A model generated the notes under the pieces. It saw nothing but the letters and a program-made list of their open reading frames with translations, did no database searches and was not told the DNA's origin. Positions 2,130 through 51,230 of a stretch of DNA of 64,000 nucleotides are shown one piece after another; position 1 is the first letter of the stretch, and the number at the start of each line of letters is the position of its first letter. This stretch comes from Liolophura sinensis (lineage: Eukaryota > Mollusca > Polyplacophora > Chitonida > Chitonidae), in NCBI RefSeq assembly GCF_032854445.1, contig NC_088303.1, positions 5,341,501 through 5,405,500 on the forward strand, in the 5' to 3' direction. The translations under genes and the position numbers were made by a program.

Positions 2130-2215
2130 TGGATGGTTCCCTCCTACCAGAATGCTAGCTGCAGTCGTATAAATGAAATATTCTTCAGTAAGCATACTCC
2201 AGCACCAATCAAATA
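2130..2215 (-). repeat. SINE head fragment (minus strand)
   Basis: Read on the minus strand, this begins 'ATTTGATTGGTGCTGGAGTA', continues 'GAAGAATATTTCATTTATACG' (split by small changes) and ends in 'AGCATTCTGGTAGGAGG'. It is a diverged copy of the head of the SINE found complete at 27905-28332. Confidence 0.55.
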
Positions 2216-5600: not shown

Positions 5601-8600
5601 TGTAGTTAAAAGGTTTTATTTTACGGTAGTTCCTAAATTGAACATACATCTGTCTGTCCACTCAAGAGCGTTGTTGGCGTGAACTCCCCAGATCCCTGAA
5701 ATGTCGACTTGGCTTATTGGCTTTGATCCGTGACACGAAACGTCACAAACTCAACAAACTGGTATGTTGGACGTCCATACTATTGCAAATAAAAGACAGC
5801 AAACTTTGTCTAAATAATAACGTTAAACTCTATAGGATTGTTTTTGAAACTTAGACTGCATTGCCATGGGTCATTTCTTAATAAAAACGATATAGCAGGT
5901 TTGATCATCGGGGAAGTATGTTTTGAGATTGACACCTTTTACCTTTTAGCCTAACTTTGTTTCTAATTCTGCGATGTTTGAAATTGTAGTCTGGTACAAC
6001 ATAAATAACTCTATTTCACCTAAAGTTTGGTGTATAAACATGCATTTTCAGAAGTATAAAAACTCTTTAAAATGATACCATCTTTTTCGCTACCATGAGA
6101 TTTCCATGGAATTCCGTGGTTTTACACTCACAGATCCTGAAGTCGGTCCTGGTGTGAGTTTGTCCTCGTTCACAGACTGCCCGACGGACCCCTCTGTTAG
6201 AGATGTATACTTATACTGGAGGGTAAGCACTAATATTGGAACATATGTACTAATATTGGAAGCTAATCATGTAGGCCTAATGGCTACTAACGACACATCA
6301 CTCCCATAACTGTATACTTATACCGGAAAGTAACCATGCAGACCTATTAGCTGCTCCCCGCACATCACTTCTATATCTGTATATTTATACTGCGAGGTAA
6401 CCGTGTATTCCTGCTGGCTGCTCACGACACATCACACCAATAGCTTTATAATTATACCTAAAGGTAACCATGCAGGCCTGCTGGCTTTTCACTACACACC
6501 AATGTCATAGCTGTAATCTTATACTGGTATGTAACTTCCTACTCCCTGCTCACGACACACCACTCTCACAACTGTGTATCTATACCGGAAGGTAACCATG
6601 CAGGCCCGCAGGCTTTTCACTACTTACCAATATCATAGCTGAATACTTATACTGGTATGTAACTTCCTACTCCCTGCTCACGACACACCACTCTCACAAC
6701 TGTGTATCTATACCGGAAGGTAACCATGTAGGCCTGCAGGCTTTTCACTACTTACCAATATCATAGCTGTATACTTATACTGGTATGTAACTTTCTACTC
6801 CCTGCTCACGACACACCACTCTCACAACTGTGTATCTATACCGGAAGGTAACCATGCAGGCCTGCTGGCTTTTCACTACACACCAATGTCATAGCTGTAA
6901 TCTTATACTGGTATGTAACTTCCTACTCCCTGCTCACGACACACCACTCTGACAACTGTGTATCTATACCGGAAGGTAACCATGTAGGCCTGCAGGCTTT
7001 TCACTACTTACCAATATCATAGCTGTATACTTATACTGGTATGTAACTTCCTACTCTCTGCTCACGACACACCACTCTCATAACTGTATATCCATTCCGG
7101 ACGGTAACCATGTAGGCCTATTGGCTGCTCACCACACACCACTGCCATAACTATATACCTATATTGAAAAGTAACAATGTACGCCTGTTAGCTGCTCACG
7201 GCACACCACTTTCATAGCTGTACACTTATAGCGGAAGGTAAACATGTATTCCTACTGGCTACTCCCCGCACAATACTGCCATAGCTGTATACTTATACTG
7301 GAAGGTAACCATGTATTCCTACTGGCTGCTCCCACACACCACTGCCATAGCTGTATACTTTTAATGGAAGGTAACCATGTATTCCTAGTGGCTGCTCCCT
7401 GCACACCACTGCCATAGCTGTATACTTCTACTGGAAGGTAACCATGTATTCCTAGTGGCTGCTCCCTGCACACCACTGCCATAGCTGTATACTTCTACTG
7501 GAAGGTAACCATGTATTCCTTCTGGCTGCTCCCACACACCACTGCTATAGCTGTATACTTCTACTGGAAGGTAACCATGTATTCCTACTGGCTGCTTCCC
7601 GCACACCACTGCCATAGCTGTATACTTTTAGTGGAAGGTAACCATGTATTCCTACTGGCTGCTCCCCGCACTCCGCTGCCATTAGCTGTATACTTCTACT
7701 GGAAGGTAACCATGTGCTCCTTCTGGCTGCTCCCTGCACACCACTGCCATAGCTGTATACTTTTAATGGAAGGTAACCATGTATTCCTACTGGCTGCTCC
7801 CTGCACACCACTGCCATAGCTGTATACTTATACTGGAAGGTAACCATGTATTCCTACTGGCTGCTCCCCGCACACCACTGCCATAACTGTATACTTTTAG
7901 TGGAAGGTAACCATGTATTCCTACTGGCTGCTCCCTGCACACCACTGCCATAGCTGTATACTTCTACTGGAAGGTAACCATGTATTCCTACTGGCTGCTC
8001 CCTGCACTCCTCTGCCATAGCTGTATACTTCTACTGGAAGGTAACCATGTATTCCTACTGGCTGCTCCCTGCACACCACTGCCATAGCTGTATACTTTTA
8101 GTGGAAGGTAACCATGTATTCCTACTGGCTGCTCCCCGCACTCCGCTGCCATTACCTGTATACTTCTACTGGAAGGTAACCATGTATTCCTTCTGGCTGC
8201 TCCCCGCACACCACTGCCATAACTGTATACCTCTACTTGAAGGTAACCATGTATTCCTACTGGCTACTCCCCGCACACCACTGCCATAGCTGTATACTTT
8301 TAATGGAAGGTAACCATGTATTCCTACTGGCTGCTCCCCGCACTCCGCTGCCATTAGCTGTATACTTCTACTGGAAGGTAACCATGTATTCCTTCTGGCT
8401 GCTCCCCGCACACCACTGCCATAACTGTATACTTTTAGTGGAAGGTAACCATGTATTCCTACTGGCTGCTCCCCGCACACCACTGCCATAGCTGTATACT
8501 TCTACTGGAAGGTAACCATGTATTCCTTCTGGCTGCTCCCCGCACACCACTGCCATAACTGTATACTTTTAGTGGAAGGTAACCATGTATTCCTACTGGC

Positions 8601-11600
8601 TGCTCCCCGCACACCACTGCCATAGCTGTATACTACTACTAGAAATTAACCATGTATTCCTTCTGGCTGCTCCCCGCACACCACTGCCATAGCTGTATAC
8701 TACTACTAGAAATTAACCATGTATTCCTTCTGGCTGCTTCCTACACACCACTGCCATAGCTGTATATTTTTACTGGAAAGCTGCTCCCCGCACAACACTG
8801 CCATAGCTGTATACTTATACTGGAAGGTAACCATGTATTCCTACTGGCTGCTCCCACACACCACTGCCATAGCTGTATACTTTTAGTTGAAGGTAGCCAT
8901 GTATTCCTACTGGCTACTCCCCAGACACCACTGCCATGGGTGAATACTCCTACTGGAAGGTAACCATGTATTCCTACTGGCTGCTTCCAGTACACCACTG
9001 CCATAGCTGTATACTTCTACTTGTACACAGCTACTATAGGTACACGAATGTAGGCGTCGTCATGCAGCCGAGTAAAGTGGTGGCCAACTGTTCTGTAGGT
9101 ATCGCACGCAAGTAAAGATACCAGTTGTATCCCAAACTCGTTTATATAATTATTTCTTGGAATTTCCAGAAGCGATAATCTAGTGTCACACTTTGATACG
9201 TTATCATTGCCAGACTCTTTCCTGTCTGGTTTTGGTTTACGTTATCATAGCCAGACTCTTGCCTGTCTGGTTTATATTGGTCATATTTGTTCTGTGTTAA
9301 GGCTCCTGACTCAAGCAAAACCCACGGCCACATCACCGGTTATGATGTGTCCGTGACAAATTTGGACACACAGGAGGTGTTCAATACCAAATCGGGACGT
9401 CGACTACGGCTAGAGAGAGTTGACAGGTACAAGGTAGACATCAAAACTCTGAACAACGCTGGTGTCAGCCGAAGTCAGTCGAGTCTTCTTTTGCCAAGGT
9501 CATCTGAAGGTCAGTACTCTTATACATGTTTCCTTTACTTCCCAGACTTCAAACGATCCCTTCATGGTTTGCGCGTGGTATGCGAATTTCGGACTTGGCT
9601 CCCAGTGTAACTTTGACGTTACAGCCGATATTGTATCATTATGTATTTCCACGTGACGCAACCCAAAATTTATTAGGTGAGCGATTTTTATATCATGTAA
9701 CCACACCTTTATTAGGTTAGAGATTTCCATGTCATGCAACCACACATTTATTAGGTTAAGGATTTCCATGTCATACAGTTTCAGGTCTGTTAAGTCAGGG
9801 AATTCCATGTCATACAGTATATTTATTAAGTCAGGGAATATTTAATAGGCCAGGGAATTTCATGTCATGTACCTACAGGTTTATTAGGTCAGATAATTTC
9901 ATGTCATGTAGCTAGAGTTTTATAAGGTGGAGCTATAAATTAATTATATTCGGGATTCCCACTTTTCCATATCATGTAGCTGCAGGTTTATTAGGGCAGA
10001 GAATTTCATATCACACAGCTGCATATTTGTTTGGTCAGGATCCATCACGTAGCTATAAGTTTATTAGGTCAGGGAGTTTAATATCATGTAGCTACATGTT
10101 TATTAGGTCAGGACAGTTAAACATAATGAGTTTTCCATATCATGGAGCTTTATTAGGTCACAGATTGCAGATGATGCACCTTTATTAGATCAGGAATTTT
10201 GACATGATTCACCTTTATTGGATCCGGAATTCCGCACATGATTCACCTTTATTAGATCAGGAGTTTCCACAAGATACACCTTTATTAGATCAGAAATATC
10301 GACATGATTCACCTTTATTAGATCAGGAATTTCCACAAGATACGCCTTTATTAGATCAGAAATATCGACATGATTCACCTTTATTAGATCCGGAATTTCC
10401 ACATGGTGCACCTTTATTAGATCAGGAATTTCGACATGATTCACCTTTATTAGATCCGGAATTTCCACATGGTGCACCTTTATTAGATCAGGAGTTTCCA
10501 CATGATGCACATATATTAGATCAGGGATTTCCACATGGTGCACCTTTATTAGATTAGGAGTTTCCACATAATGCACATTTATTAGATCAGGGATTTCCAC
10601 ATGGTTCAACGTCATTATTTATTTATTTATTCGATTGCTGTTTTACGCCGTACTCAAGATTATTTCACTTATACGACGGCGACCAGCATTATGGTGGGTG
10701 GAAACCCACCTTTATTAGATCCGGAATTTCCACAAGATGCACCTTTATTAGATCCGGAATTTTGACATGATTCACCTTTATTAGATCAGGAATTTCCACA
10801 TGGTGCACCTGTGTTAGGTGAGGGATTTCCACATGGTGCACCGTCATTATTTATTTATTTATTTGATTGGTGTTTTACACCGTACTCAAGAATATTTCAC
10901 TTATACGACGGCGACCAGCATTATGGTGGGTGGAAACCCACCTTTATTAGATCCGGAATTTCTACATGGTGCACCTTGATTAGATCAGGAATTTCCACAT
11001 GATGCGCCTTGTATAGTTAAAAACTCAGTATTTGTAATTCCTTAGCTGACGTGCAGAAATAAATTATTTGACATAAAACGCTGGAATCATAAATGAGTAT
11101 GCAGACATACTGCATAGAGAGTAAAACCAGAGAAGCGACGACAGTATAATACTTGGCCACACGTAACCAGTGAAATACGGCCTCGTTACAAATACTTCAG
11201 TTAGGATTTATTCTCACTGTTCATGTAAATGCTTCAGTAGTAGCAAACTGAAACGACCCTTGGGCCTTGGCTAAAGCAGTATTAGGTAAAAAAGGAATCC
11301 AATAATGTTACTTGGAAGTTATTAGAATGAATGAATGATTATGGTTTAACGCCACATCGGCAATAGGAATTTTTTAGACGTCACTGGCTTAGAATTACTA
11401 AGAGTAAAGTGTTGTTATCACCCCATCACCCCATTTATCATGGCACTCAGTGAAAGAGTCAAGATGACTGTCATCTGCGTGATCACGAATGTCAGTTTTG
11501 CTCTTGAGTCGCTTTAGCACCACGAAGAGAGCAAAGAGAATATCTTACAAAACACACTGAGCAAAGGCTTTGCGCGAGTGGGAATAAAGATTGGAAAATA

Positions 11601-14600
11601 ATGGGATACCCCAGGATCACGAAGCAATCTTAGACTAAGTCAAAGTTTCATATCACTTTAAACTGTTATTTCTTATTCAACAAGGTCAAAATATTGCTTG
11701 ACAACGTAAGTTCTGGGTAAGTTATTGTAGACCAAATTCCACCTAAAATAATTGAAAGGAACATACCAAATTTGATGATTGAAATTTTGACTTAAAGTGA
11801 AAGACACCATCTGACTTATGATTATGTCCACTGAAAGACCACTATTAAAAGTATCTTAAACCGGCATTAAATATTGTTTTTAGATTTTTTTCATCCCGGT
11901 AACAGTTTAGTGAAACACCGTCTTGACACGGCCTCAGCACGTCTCCATTATCAAAGGGAAAGGTGACTCTAGCTCTCTAAGGTCGAAGGTATTTTTCGTA
12001 TAATAGTCTAATCAGTAGCCTACAACAGATAAACGTTGTAGACTTCGGCTGTGACGGTTCAAGTGATAAATGTAATTTATAACGTGGACATGGAAGAATA
12101 TTTCTTCCACTGCTTAAACTGTTGATACAGCAGGCCCACTATATCATTTAAAAGGAACTCCAGCGACCGGTTTCAATAGCCTAGCTATAGATGCTGATGC
12201 GCTGCCGGTGTAATCCCGGTTCAGCTCGTAGTCTCCAGAGGGGTTGTACTGGTAATTTTGACACCAATTAAATGTTTACAAAATTACAATAGGATTGTTG
12301 TACAACTAGATTCATGCTCAATTTTTAAACAAATGGAAATCAATCTAAGTACCACTGAGGCAGATTTAGGCATTCGACCGTCGCTGGATTTTATGCTTCA
12401 GTTTTGTAGTGGTGGCTTCTAAGGTGAGAGCTGTGCTGGCCTAGTTATCGCAAATGTCAGAGAAAAAACATCGGCTTGAACAGTGCGTTTCAGTAATTTT
12501 ACTGTATTTTATAAAAGACATCCTTTCTATGCGAAAAAGACGAAGGAGCAAAAATTTTCAGTTGTAATATACTCAGAGGAAACAATTATATCAAAAATTT
12601 TTAAATGAATTTTTAGCGTTTTCTGGTGAGATGCAGTCTTCTCATTCCCATAAACCTTCGGCTTCAAGATGGTGCGGAATGCAGTAGTTCCGTGTTATCA
12701 TATTTCACTTCATGGAGTGAATGGGTAAAGGCTACATCACAGCTTACACCGCTCAAACTGATAGCAACGTGTTTGATTGGATAAAATTCTCAAGATGGCT
12801 ACTTCAACTTACTTTTTAGAAAACGTGAGTATCCTGTTTTCGGCTGAAATATGTTTTAGTCAGGATCTAATCAAATGCTACAGGAGAGGTGGAGTTGGGA
12901 TGAGGTGGAGTTGGGATGAGGTGGAGTTGGGATGAGGTGGGCCGGGTGGGTCTACTATCTCATAGTAAATAGTCAGTCGCCTATACCCTGACTCTGTAGG
13001 CAACCTCATACACGTTTTAGCAGATTTTGAGCACCAACGTTTAAGATTTCTTTCCGTTATTTGAAGTAAGATAAAGCTGGAAAAAATTGCTGTTCTTTCC
13101 ACAGTAAGATCCGCCTCCTACGACCCTACCACACCATCTCTTGACCTGTCACGATAACTGGAAAATTGCGATGGTGAAACTGCCTATGTCTTTTTTCACT
13201 CAGTTTTGGCCCCTGTCCAGAAGCCGGAGGCGGAACAAAATGGCACTCACGTGATCGTGACGTGGGGTTTACTTCCTTCCGATGCCAGCAGGAGGTCGGT
13301 GACCGTGCACTCCTGTGTAGGCGTCGTCATGCAGCCGAGTAAAGTGGTGGCCAACTGTTCTGTAGGTATCGCACGCAAGTAAACATACCAGTTGTATTTC
13401 AAACTCATTTATATAATTATTTCTTGGAATTTCCAGAAGCGATAATCTAGTGTCACACTTTGATAAAGTTGGTTTCTCGATGGATATTTCCTGCAAACTG
13501 GAGCGATGTTTGAAGCCTTGCCGTCGTCAGGCGATGCTGGAACATGTCAAAAATATCCATCTTGACGACTGTACCCTAAAACCATCCATGTTTACTGACT
13601 GTTTATTGTTTTGTTTTGTGAAGGATTCCTACAACTGGGTGAAGCTAGAAGAGTCTGCAAAGTCGTGGTCTGTTGCGATTGACAATCGTAGAATCTACGT
13701 ATTTGGAGTGTCCGTGGAAACCGCTGATCAAACAAGTGGTATACAGTGGATCAGTTGCTTGTTCCAGAAAGGAAAAGGTAGTTTGACAAATAAAAAACTC
13801 AATCAAAGGTTACTGTTTTATTGGTTTTGATCTCAAATCTGCCTGGGCCACGTTTCACTAAGTGACCGTAGACTAAGTCAGTTGTATAGTTGCAACTGAC
13901 TTAGTCTACCGTAGTTATTATTCCGTGTTACTTAGTAACACATGCTTTAACCTGTGCTGTCAGGACAGTTACAAACAGCTTAGCTTATCACCTGGTGGAG
14001 ATTCCACAAAGCCATTTTTGACTTAAGGTCAAACATTTAATATAAGATTGTAAGCTTATTTTTGAGCCATGTAAATTAAAAGTTTGACCAACTCACCAAT
14101 GTTATCGTAAGACAAATATATCCACATTTCATCTTCCATCACCGAAAACTGAACCTCTTTAAACGTTTCAAGCTTTGATTTAAGTCAGAAATATCTTTGT
14201 CGAATCGAATCGACCCCTGTTCTTAAATTATATGTCTCTAGCCAAGTGTTTTAGTCTACCCCCGGTCCAGACGCACGTACGTATTTTTTAAGCTTAGGTT
14301 CACCAATTATGTCCTCGCGCAGAGCTATTTATTTAGCATTCATCAATAAAATTGTTTCAGGTTTTGCTTAGAATCATATTGCACATACAAATAAATGTAA
14401 TGCACGTGTAAAAAGTATTATTAGAAACAAACATTCAGCACGTCGCAATGACAAGATAACCTCTCACCATTGCGGTCGCTTAAAGTCTAGCTCACGTTGG
14501 TTTCCTCTCCGGCCGTACGTTGGTAGGTCTGCCAGCAACTTTTGGATGGTCATGGGTTTCCCCGGGCTCTGCCCGGTTTCAGCCCACCATAATGCTGACC

Positions 14601-27904: not shown

Positions 27905-28332
27905 GATTGGTGTTTTATTTATTTATTTATTTATGTGATTGGTGTTTTACGCCGTACTCAAGAATATTTCACTCATACGACGGTGGCCAGCATTATGATG
28001 GGAGGAAACCGGACAGAACCCAGGGAAAACCCACGACTATCTGCAGGTTGCTGGAAGACCTTCCCACGTACGCCCGGAGAGGAAGCCAGCATAGATTGGT
28101 CTTTTACACCATATTCAAGAATATGTCACTCATATGACGGCGGCCAGCAATATAGTGGAAGGAAACCGGGCAGAGCCCGGGAGAAAACCACGGCCATCCG
28201 CAGGTTGCTGGCATACCTTCTTACATACAGACGGAGTGGAAGCCCGCATGAGTTGGACTTGAACTCACAACGAGAGACTCGTGGGTCATTACGCTGCGCT
28301 AGCGCGCTAACAAACTGACCCAAGGAGGCCCC
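27905..28332 (+). mobile_element. SINE dimer, second unit with complete 3' end
   Basis: The first unit (27905-28105) runs from a poly-ATTT start through TGATTGGTGTTTTACGCCGT, CAGCATTATGATGGGAGGAA and ACCTTCCCACGTACGCCCGG to CCGGAGAGGAAGCCAGCAT. The second unit (28106-28332) restarts at the head and continues to a tRNA-like 3' end: GTTGGACTTGAACTCACA, then CGCTGCGCTAGCGCGCTAAC, then CTGACCCAAGGAGGCCCC. This is the best reference copy in the window. By overall layout it resembles molluscan V-SINE-type elements, but I cannot confirm the named family. Confidence 0.85.
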
Positions 28333-44295: not shown

Positions 44296-47200
44296 GTGAG
44301 TAGGTCATGTCCCAGTTCTCCCTCAAAACTCAAATGTTATAGACCTATACACAGTTTCTGTGTAATCCAGCAAGAGGTCGGAAAAAAAACATAACATAAA
44401 ATTCAGATGAAAGAGTGCGAAAAATTAGTTGTAAATGTGTTTATCTCCTCCTGATAATTACTAACAATTTTGCTTGTTTGGTGGTAAACAACTATGAGAT
44501 AAATAAATAAATTGGATTACACATAAACTAGCTCTAGTGCTGGATTACACATAAACTGACTCTAGAGCTAGATTGCACATAAACTGGCTCTAGAGCTGGA
44601 TTACACATAAACTAGCTCTAGTGCTGGATTACACATAAACTATCTCTAGAGCTGGATAACACACAAACTAGCTCTAGAGCTGGATTACACACAAACTAGC
44701 TCTAGAACTGGATTACACACAAACTGACACTAGGGCTGGATAACACACAGACAATCTCTAAAGCTGGATTAAACAGAAACTGGCTCTAGAGCTGGATTAC
44801 ACACAGACTGACTCTAGAGCTGGATTACACACAAACTGACTCTAAAGTTGGATTACAAACATCTGGCTCTAGAGCTGGAGTACACATAAACTAACTCTAG
44901 AGCTGGATTACACACAAACTAGCTTTATTGCTGGATTGCACAGAAACTGGCTCTAGAGCTGGATTATACAGAAACTGGCTCTAGAGCTAGATTACACAGA
45001 AACTAGCTTTAGAGCTGGATTACACACAAACTAGCTCTAGAGCTGGATTACACACAGACTAGCTCTAGAGCTGGATTGCACACACTAGCTTTAGAGCTGG
45101 ATTACACACAAACTAGCTCTCGAGCTCGATCACACACAAACTAGCTCTAGAACTGGATGACACACAAACTGACTCTAGAGCTGGATTACACAGAAACTAT
45201 GTCTAGAGCTGGATTACACAGAAACTATCTCTAGAGCTGGATTACACACAGACTGACTCTAGAGCTGGATTACACACAAACTGACTCTAGAGCTGGATTA
45301 CAAACAATCTGGCTCTAGAGCTGGATTACACATAAACTAGCTCTAGTGCTGGATTACACAGAAACCGCTCTAGAGCTGAATTACACATAAACTAGCTCTA
45401 GTGCTGGATTACACACAAACTAGCTCTAGTGCTGGATTACACATAAACTGGCTCTAGACCTGAATTACACATAAACTGGCTTTAGAGCTGGATTACACAC
45501 AAACTGACTCTAGGGCTGGATTACACACAAACTATATCTAGGGCTGGATCACATACAAACTTGCTCTAGGGCTGGATTACACATAAACTGGCTCTAGATC
45601 TGGATTACACATAAACTAGCTCTAGAGGGGGAGTTACACATAAACTAGCTCTAGTGCTGTATTACACAGAAACTGGCTCTAGAGCTGGATTATACAGAAA
45701 CTGGCTCAAGAGCTGGATTACACATAAACTAGCTCTAGAGCTGGATTACACAGAAACTGGCTCTAGGGCTGGATTACACACAAACTTGATCTAGGGCTGG
45801 ATTACACATAAACTGGCTCTAGATCTGGATTACACATAAACTAGCTCTAGAGGGGGGTTACACATAAACTAGCTCTAGTGCTGTATTACACAGAAACTGG
45901 CTCTAGAGCTGGATTATACAGAAACTGGCTCAAGAGCTGAATTACACACAAACTGGCTCTAGAGCTAGATTGCACATAAACTAGCTCTAGAGCTGGATTA
46001 CACATAAACTAGCTCTAGAGCTGGATTACACATATACTGGCTCTAGAGCTGGATCAGCAAAAATCAGAAGGCGCTTCCTGTCGTTTGACATCCAGGTCAC
46101 TTGGTCACATGTCTGTGTGGTGTATTACATCCCCACGCGTTGTGTATTATCGTCTTCAGATGTGCCGTCAAGAACTCTATGTGCTTTGCTTCATTACTAC
46201 AGTCATTTTTTGAGGGCTTATATCTTATCGCCTTCGTGTGTGTCATAATCAGTATCGCTAAGAACTGTATATCACCCGCACTGTTAAGAATTAATTAAAT
46301 TAATAGAAACAAGTGCTATGTTGCTACTGTGATTTTTTCAGGTCTTGTGTCTTATCGCCTTCATCTGTGCCATCATCTACACACGGCACTGGACCGCACT
46401 AGGCCTTGGCTGGGTACAATTTGTCACCATCTCCGCCTGTATCGCCGTCATGATTATCTTCTTTCTGTACGTCTTCCACATTGTGGATCGCCTCCATGCT
46501 GTATTTGCCTTGCTGGTGAGTTACTTTGTGTGGTGGAATACAAGTCACAAAATATCTTACCCACCGGATGGATGATGGATATGAAGCACTATATTCTGAA
46601 AGCGATGCTATGGGCGTCTGTTGACTCGGTTATGTCCCTTTGTTCAGCTCTCACTTCAATGAACCACGAGATTTGCTGGTACAGCGGCCTGAATTATTTA
46701 TTTATCTGTTTGCTCGGTGTTTTAACGCCGTACTCAAGAATATTTTATACGACGGCAGTCAGCATTATGGTGTAAGTAAACCGGACAGAGCGCTGGGGAA
46801 GCCCACGACCGTCGAGGTTGCCTAGTCTTCTGAGTGTAATTGTGGGCCTTCAGGGAGATATATCCATTCCTCGGTTGGGGTCTACTCTTTGAGAGGGTAC
46901 ATAAACACATGAAGGTTACTGACCCTATATATTTCATAATCCTGTTACTACATAACCACAGAAATAATAAAATTAGGAGCAGCTTGCAGCATGGCAAACT
47001 AATCAACTGGGCATCAAGGAATTTTATGTGACTATATTTTTGTGTTGTTATTGTAGGTGCTAATATTTTACTTCGTCTATGACATATTCCTACTGGTGGC
47101 TGGTATCCTCGCGGCTGTCCAGGCCTCTCAGTACGGAGGACGGTATTATGGAAGCGAAACGGTGGCCGCCGCAGCGGTAAGTGGGAGTTTCACATATGTC

Positions 47201-51039: not shown

Positions 51040-51230
51040 TGCACCAATGCGGTCGCTGTGAGTTCAAGTCCAGCTCATGTTGCTGTACGTGGTAGGTCTT
51101 CCAGAAACCGGATTGTCGTGGATTTCCCCAGGCTCTGTCCGGTTTACCCCCCCACCGTAATGCTGGCCGCCGCCATATAAGTGAAATATTCTTGAATATG
51201 GCCTAAAAAACTCCAGTCTAATCAAATCAT
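51040..51230 (-). repeat. SINE copy (minus strand)
   Basis: On the minus strand this reads GGCCATATTCAAGAATATTT, CACTTATATGGCGGCGGCCA, GCATTACGGTGG, then ACCGGACAGAGCCTGGGGAA and AGCTGGACTTGAACTCACAG. Head, middle and tail are all present in diverged form. Confidence 0.85.

What the first reader, a model, noticed from the sequence alone, without database searches (positions are those of the whole stretch)
6134..9030. A minisatellite that grew out of an exon end and its 5' splice site
The last bases of exon 6134-6222 and its donor (TGTATACTTATACTGGAGGG plus TAAGC) are the template of about 40 downstream monomers (TGTATACTTCTACTGGAAGG plus TAACC). Each monomer re-creates the FN3 C-strand codons (VYFYWK) and a GGTAAC donor-like site, so the real 5' splice site is followed by dozens of decoys over 2.8 kb. 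I infer possible splice-site competition, or buffering if the first donor mutates. Tandem amplification of a functional exon-intron border is unusual.
Basis: partly seen in the sequence, partly recalled or inferred. Interest (0 to 1): 0.72.

Follow-up and report, generated by a model that had tools for sequence, protein, structure and literature searches.

The report
Exon end copied into intron minisatellite
In a chiton gene for a cytokine-receptor-like protein, the end of one coding exon and its splice signal were copied head to tail about forty times into the next intron; this is a real but probably harmless structure of a kind already known from lancelets as a 'mirage'.

Summary
43 units (mostly 67 bp, 6248-9021) follow exon 6134-6222. 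Exon end plus donor matches the unit consensus at 23 of 25 bases; elsewhere in the window nothing exceeds 19. In the same register the match runs further into the exon (44 of 58 bases, 6172-6229). Two distal units used as query hit only this array in the 609-Mb assembly, which matches the published chiton Liolophura japonica genome. The gene is gp130-like; the exon end encodes the FN3 strand with the conserved Trp (B, not C), which favours exon-to-array.

The functional reading is weaker. 38 of 43 units keep a GT at the donor position, all without the real donor's +5 G; five units also hold a shifted, somewhat stronger GTATGT. 0 of 160 intronic GTs score as high as the real donor. All homologous decoys lie beyond an in-frame stop at 6307, so buffering is disfavoured; competition is untestable without RNA.

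This matches amphioxus 'mirages' (PMC3087553, PMC3902484; passages read). I judge it a new member of that kind, in a mollusc, and most likely a tolerated by-product.

The parts
6134..6222 (+). Exon 4 (numbering from the first exon seen in the window): first half of an FN3 domain, ending ...RDVYLYWR; enters in phase 1, leaves in phase 0
   Evidence: acceptor CACAG, donor GTAAGC, frames join with both neighbours; joined with exon 5 it raises the Pfam FN3 score from 17.3 to 21.8 bits, still below the cut-off of 25
6172..6228 (+). Template: last 51 nt of the exon plus the donor hexamer
   Evidence: 44/58 to the unit consensus over 6172-6229; 23/25 over 6204-6228
6223..6228 (+). Real 5' splice site AGG|GTAAGC (with +5 G)
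6229..6247 (+). Short stretch (ACTAATATTGGAA...) repeated at 6249-6261; perhaps a truncated further copy of the core
   Evidence: sequence; inference
6248..9021 (+). Minisatellite, 43 units; proximal units diverged, units 3-12 an alternating 128-bp dimer (67+61), units 16-37 homogeneous (mean identity 0.93)
6307..6309 (+). First in-frame stop if exon 4 is read past its donor
9302..9509 (+). Exon 5: second half of the same FN3 domain (APDSSKTHGHITGYDV...)
9049..9198 (+). 150-bp copy (97.3%) of 13316-13465 (end of exon 6 or start of intron 6) in the tail of the same intron; relation to the array unknown

Best explanation
A segment of about 67 bp that spanned the last ~50 nt of exon 4 and the first nucleotides of intron 4 of a gp130-like receptor gene was duplicated in tandem on its intron side. 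The intronic copies then multiplied by slippage or unequal exchange (shown: array, shared register, higher-order dimer, homogeneous interior, diverged units next to the exon; inferred: mechanism and founder length). The exon copy stayed under coding constraint. The copies carry donor-like GTs as passengers; the spliceosome most likely still uses the real donor because it comes first, scores higher and pairs better with U1, while use of a homologous decoy adds an in-frame stop and would be lost by nonsense-mediated decay (inferred). It is a 'mirage' minisatellite of the amphioxus kind, here in a mollusc, and no function is needed to explain it.
For: 23/25 match in donor register against a window maximum of 18-19; match continues upstream to 6172 in the same register; of 576 pairs of array consensus and exon border tested in the first 25 kb, the 9 best (17-21 of 22 bases) all join this array with the donor of exon 4 (limits in the full report); two distal units as query hit only this array in the genome; phmmer aligns RDVYLYWRAPDSSKTHGHITGYDVSVT to RSVRLIWKALPLSEANGKILDYEVILT of a gp130 chain (whole query E 1.5e-8), and the four FN3-type domains of this gene all have Val and Trp at these columns; the real donor outscores all 160 intron GTs; passages on lancelet mirages state that they do not disturb regular splicing.
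Against: The exon is closest to interior or distal units (23/25 for units 16, 24, 39), not to its neighbours (16 of 21 aligned bases, 21/25 and 20/25 for units 0, 1, 2); interior homogenisation and decay at the edge would explain this but are not proved. The upstream extension is significant only with the register fixed. No RNA, second individual or second species was available. The donor weights are recalled human-like frequencies; of five donors of this gene scored (exons 1-5), exon 2 (2.88) is no better than the common decoy (2.86) and below the five GTATGT decoys (3.5).
Confidence: 0.8

Rival explanations
1. The array came first and the exon end was captured from it: the donor moved into, or was gene-converted by, a unit.
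For: The exon is nearest to interior units, not to the adjacent ones; conversion from array to exon would look like that.
Against: The exon end encodes V-x-L-x-W-R/K at the place where gp130 and the other FN3-type domains of the gene have a like pattern, which predates the array; the unit was found nowhere else in the genome; the resemblance reaches 51 nt into the exon.
Confidence: 0.08
2. The decoys matter: dozens of weak donors sequester U1 or compete with the real donor and tune the amount of receptor through unproductive splicing.
For: 38 of 43 units keep the GT; the common decoy scores like the real donor of exon 2 (2.86 against 2.88), and five CTG|GTATGT sites, which do have +5 G, reach 3.5.
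Against: No site reaches the real donor (4.93; 0 of 160); the GT at the homologous position never has +5 G; homogenisation alone can keep GTs in the interior; lancelet mirages are reported not to disturb splicing.
Confidence: 0.1
3. The copies buffer loss of the first donor.
For: Many donor-like sites follow in order.
Against: All homologous decoys lie beyond the in-frame stop at 6307-6309, so they cannot restore the protein. One weak non-homologous GT at 6271 (score 1.4) would keep the frame with 48 extra nt.
Confidence: 0.02
4. Chance resemblance.
For: None found, except that the upstream part alone is not significant when its register is left free (43 of 500).
Against: 0 of 3044 other windows and 0 of 500 shuffled units reach the observed score of the whole junction.
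Confidence: 0.01

Closest known systems
Amphioxus 'mirages' (Adh3; globins BflGb6 and BflGb9), passages read in PMC3087553; the original Adh and troponin C papers were not seen
   Same: Minisatellite-like tandem duplications that span an exon-intron border, splice signals in many but not all units, concerted evolution inside and exclusion of the cluster edge; Adh3 units 10-72 bp
   Different: Here a mollusc (chiton), 43 units mostly of 67 bp, 5' splice-site side only; no RNA or polymorphism data
Lancelet PGBD5 tandem duplications over splice sites (PMC3902484, passage read)
   Different: 60- and 108-bp units; the 108-bp repeat is a triplication, so far fewer copies
Ordinary intronic minisatellites of this region
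   Same: Same tandem architecture; 24 merged arrays of period 15 or more cover 19.3% of the window
   Different: In the 576 pairs tested none of the other arrays matches an exon border of this gene beyond 15 of 22 bases

Membership tests
Mirage (exon-border minisatellite) | Tandem units that include an exon-intron boundary | tested here: met
   44/58 over 6172-6229, donor in register
Mirage (exon-border minisatellite) | Splice dinucleotides kept in many units | tested here: met
   38 of 43 units have GT at the donor columns
Mirage (exon-border minisatellite) | Concerted evolution inside, edge units excluded | tested here: met
   units 16-37 mean identity 0.93; units 0-2 0.72 among themselves
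Mirage (exon-border minisatellite) | Length instability between alleles or cells | not testable with these tools
   one assembly only
Mirage (exon-border minisatellite) | Regular splicing undisturbed | not testable with these tools
   no RNA data
gp130-like class I cytokine receptor (host gene) | Sequence homology to gp130 | tested here: met
   phmmer E 1.5e-8, query residues 40-263 of 462
gp130-like class I cytokine receptor (host gene) | WSxWS motif (recalled) | tested here: inconclusive
   FWSEDR near the end of exon 3; the full motif is not seen

The most novel reading that the evidence does not exclude
Exon-border minisatellites are not a lancelet peculiarity: molluscs make them too, and in this chiton receptor some 38 donor copies form a bank of decoys that sets the share of unproductive transcripts, with array length as the dial.
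Probability: 0.07. Interest if true: 0.7.

Novelty: new member of a known kind. Interest (0 to 1): 0.38.

Why it matters
It carries a phenomenon that my paper searches turned up only for lancelets into a mollusc, and with some 40 copies it is a natural test of how a spliceosome picks one donor among near-copies. It also bears on the proposal that such duplications seed new introns (PMC3087553, passage read).

Tried and rejected
Chance match: rejected for the junction as a whole. Dispersed satellite: not seen; the query was two distal units (134 bp), one candidate place was scored and all 21 matches lie in this array (the tool warns that counts are lower bounds and that very common words are skipped; proximal units were not used as a query). 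Amphioxus as the source, my first guess from the phenomenon: rejected; the held assembly has 632 contigs, 609,464,459 bases and a contig C1 of 96,433,062, against 632 scaffolds, 609,495,693 bases and a longest of 96,433,062 for Liolophura japonica (passages). Paralogue as a stand-in for a related species: none; the protein search gave 3 matches, the two exons themselves and one at E 7.3. Survey of other FN3 exons: 85 of the 148 matches were typed in; 81 that lie whole in one of the 20 fetched stretches were tested, 4 that cross a stretch border dropped out; 30 of 81 had some same-strand DNA copy within their 10 kb, at most 4 each; many of the listed partners are themselves other FN3 matches (domain duplication), but I did not check each, and a 27-nt copy beside C1:12139478 was not followed. 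These stretches have 2.9% minisatellite coverage against 19.3% in the window, so they are a poor control for array-rich introns. Rfam and tRNA scans of the window: nothing. A repeat motif that I remembered from mollusc DNA occurs 5 times in the window with up to 3 mismatches but gave 0 hits in genome contigs and viral contigs, and like strings gave 0 papers. In one search the donor of exon 6 and its copy were entered at the wrong base and are not used.

Full report
What is there. Exon 4 (6134-6222) ends AGG|GTAAGC. From 6248 to 9021 a wrap-around alignment places 43 units, mostly 67 bp; Tandem Repeats Finder reports the same array in several overlapping rows. The stretch 6204-6228, 19 exonic and 6 intronic bases, matches the unit consensus at 23 of 25 bases (distal-unit consensus 22). 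Every 25-mer outside the array, against all 67 registers and both strands, gives at most 18 (all-unit or distal consensus) or 19 (proximal consensus); 60 shuffled units against the junction reach at most 17. A local alignment extends the match without gaps over 6172-6229, 44 of 58 bases; 0 of 3044 other windows (best 35 against 60) and 0 of 500 shuffled units (best 26) reach it. The added exonic bases upstream of 6204 are significant only with the register held fixed (11 of 60,939 positions, permutation p 1.5e-4; 18 of 29 bases, p 2e-4, with a length chosen by eye); with free register 43 of 500 shuffles do as well. I take an origin of the unit from about 50 nt of exon plus the start of the intron as likely, not proved; the few bases after GTAAGC cannot be assigned cleanly.

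The gene and the species. The exons I number 1 to 6 join in frame by eye; later joins (exons 6-9) are tentative and the donor of exon 6 is uncertain. Joined, they hit gp130 chains in the PDB at E 1.5e-8 and LIFR at 3e-7. The array exon is the first half of the domain aligned to RSVRLIWK of gp130: RDVYLYWR. Joining exons 4 and 5 raises the Pfam FN3 score from 17.3 to 21.8 bits, below the cut-off of 25; the domains of exons 2-3 (31.9) and 8-9 (39.5) and the whole chain (74.7) pass it; the domain of exons 6-7 has no Pfam match in either reading tried. The assembly equals that of Liolophura japonica in scaffold number and in the length of the scaffold named C1 here (the longest there) and is within 0.01% in total length.

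Direction. Exon to array is favoured because the exon's codons fit a fold far older than the array, because two distal units as query hit only this array in the genome, and because of 576 pairs of array consensus and exon border in the first 25 kb the nine best (17-21 of 22 bases) are all this array with the exon-4 donor, the next two being 16 of 22, also with this array (exon-6 donor). Limits of that test: the nine are overlapping report rows of one array; arrays of period over 250 or starting beyond 25 kb were left out; borders that lie inside an array were skipped except for exon 4, whose 60-nt window touches the first 5 bases of the array; the borders of exons 7-9 were entered only to within a few bases. 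Against the direction: the exon is more like interior units (23/25 for 16, 24, 39) than its neighbours (16 of 21 aligned, 21/25, 20/25). Interior homogenisation (units 16-37, mean identity 0.93; units 0-2, 0.72; units 3-12 an alternating dimer, 0.95 and 0.91 within and 0.65 between the two types) with decay at the edge would explain that. In the unit tree rooted on the exon, units 16, 24 and 39 sit near the root; it adds little.

Splicing. With recalled donor frequencies the real donor scores 4.93 and pairs with U1 at -8.9 kcal/mol; the common decoy AAG|GTAACC scores 2.86 and -6.5; five CTG|GTATGT sites in the dimer region, shifted by 4 bases and with a +5 G, score 3.5 and -6.9. None of 160 GTs of the intron up to 9300 reaches the real donor, and none of 83 GTs (the best two of each unit) pairs as well with U1. 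Of the 38 units with GT at the homologous columns none has +5 G (32 C, 1 A; 5 gapped there in the alignment, and read GTAACT in the sequence). The decoys are nevertheless as good as or better than the donor of exon 2 (2.88), so strength alone does not exclude occasional use. Reading past 6222 meets a stop at 6307 and no homologous decoy precedes it; buffering is therefore disfavoured, and competition would lower output rather than give new protein. One non-homologous weak GT at 6271 (score 1.4) would add 48 nt in frame.

What is known. [quoted passage not shown] A passage in PMC3902484 adds PGBD5 and troponin C. Five paper searches listed no such case in a mollusc (20 of 210 papers listed; 15 of 15; 8 of 8; 2 of 2; 12 of 26). 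Apart from the passages named I saw only titles and starts of abstracts; a Conus intron paper (PMC3862624) that mentions minisatellites once was not opened, and most subscription journals are not held. So I call it a new member of a known kind, in what may be a new phylum for it.

How surprising. The window is rich in minisatellites (24 merged arrays of period 15 or more, 19.3% of bases, against 2.9% in 200 kb around other FN3 genes). As a rough estimate of mine, 18 borders times a 67-bp founder over a 16.6-kb gene gives each new array about a 7% chance of starting over a border, so one case among the several arrays of this gene needs no special cause. In the survey of 81 other FN3 exons none had more than 4 DNA copies nearby, but those stretches are poor in arrays.

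Noticed in passing
9049-9198 and 13316-13465: 150-bp direct copy at 97.3% identity, 4.3 kb apart: the stretch around the exon-6 donor recurs in the tail of intron 4, behind the array. It begins one base before a possible phase-0 donor (TGT|GTAGGC), so it may be just the head of intron 6. Whether it is a mobile element is open: the genome search did not complete.
   Followed up: partly
6229-6261: ACTAATATTGGAA repeated at a distance of 20 bp between the real donor and the first unit.
   Followed up: partly
6445-7084: Higher-order 128-bp dimer (67+61 bp); its 61-bp units carry CTG|GTATGT, the highest-scoring decoy donor of the array (5 sites).
   Followed up: partly
2162-2190 (-), 10651-10679, 10883-10911, 27955-27983, 51170-51198 (-): Dispersed repeat motif TACTCAAGAATATTTCACTTATACGACGG, 5 places with up to 3 mismatches; I recall it from mollusc DNA.
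   Followed up: partly
44513-46054: 28-bp minisatellite of about 55 copies, one of 24 merged arrays of period 15 or more that cover 19.3% of the window.
   Followed up: no
13204-13779: The exon 6/7 junction is uncertain: the phase that fits exon 7 points to a weak donor at 13317, while GTs at 13366 and 13379 (not scored) look better but are out of phase.
   Followed up: partly
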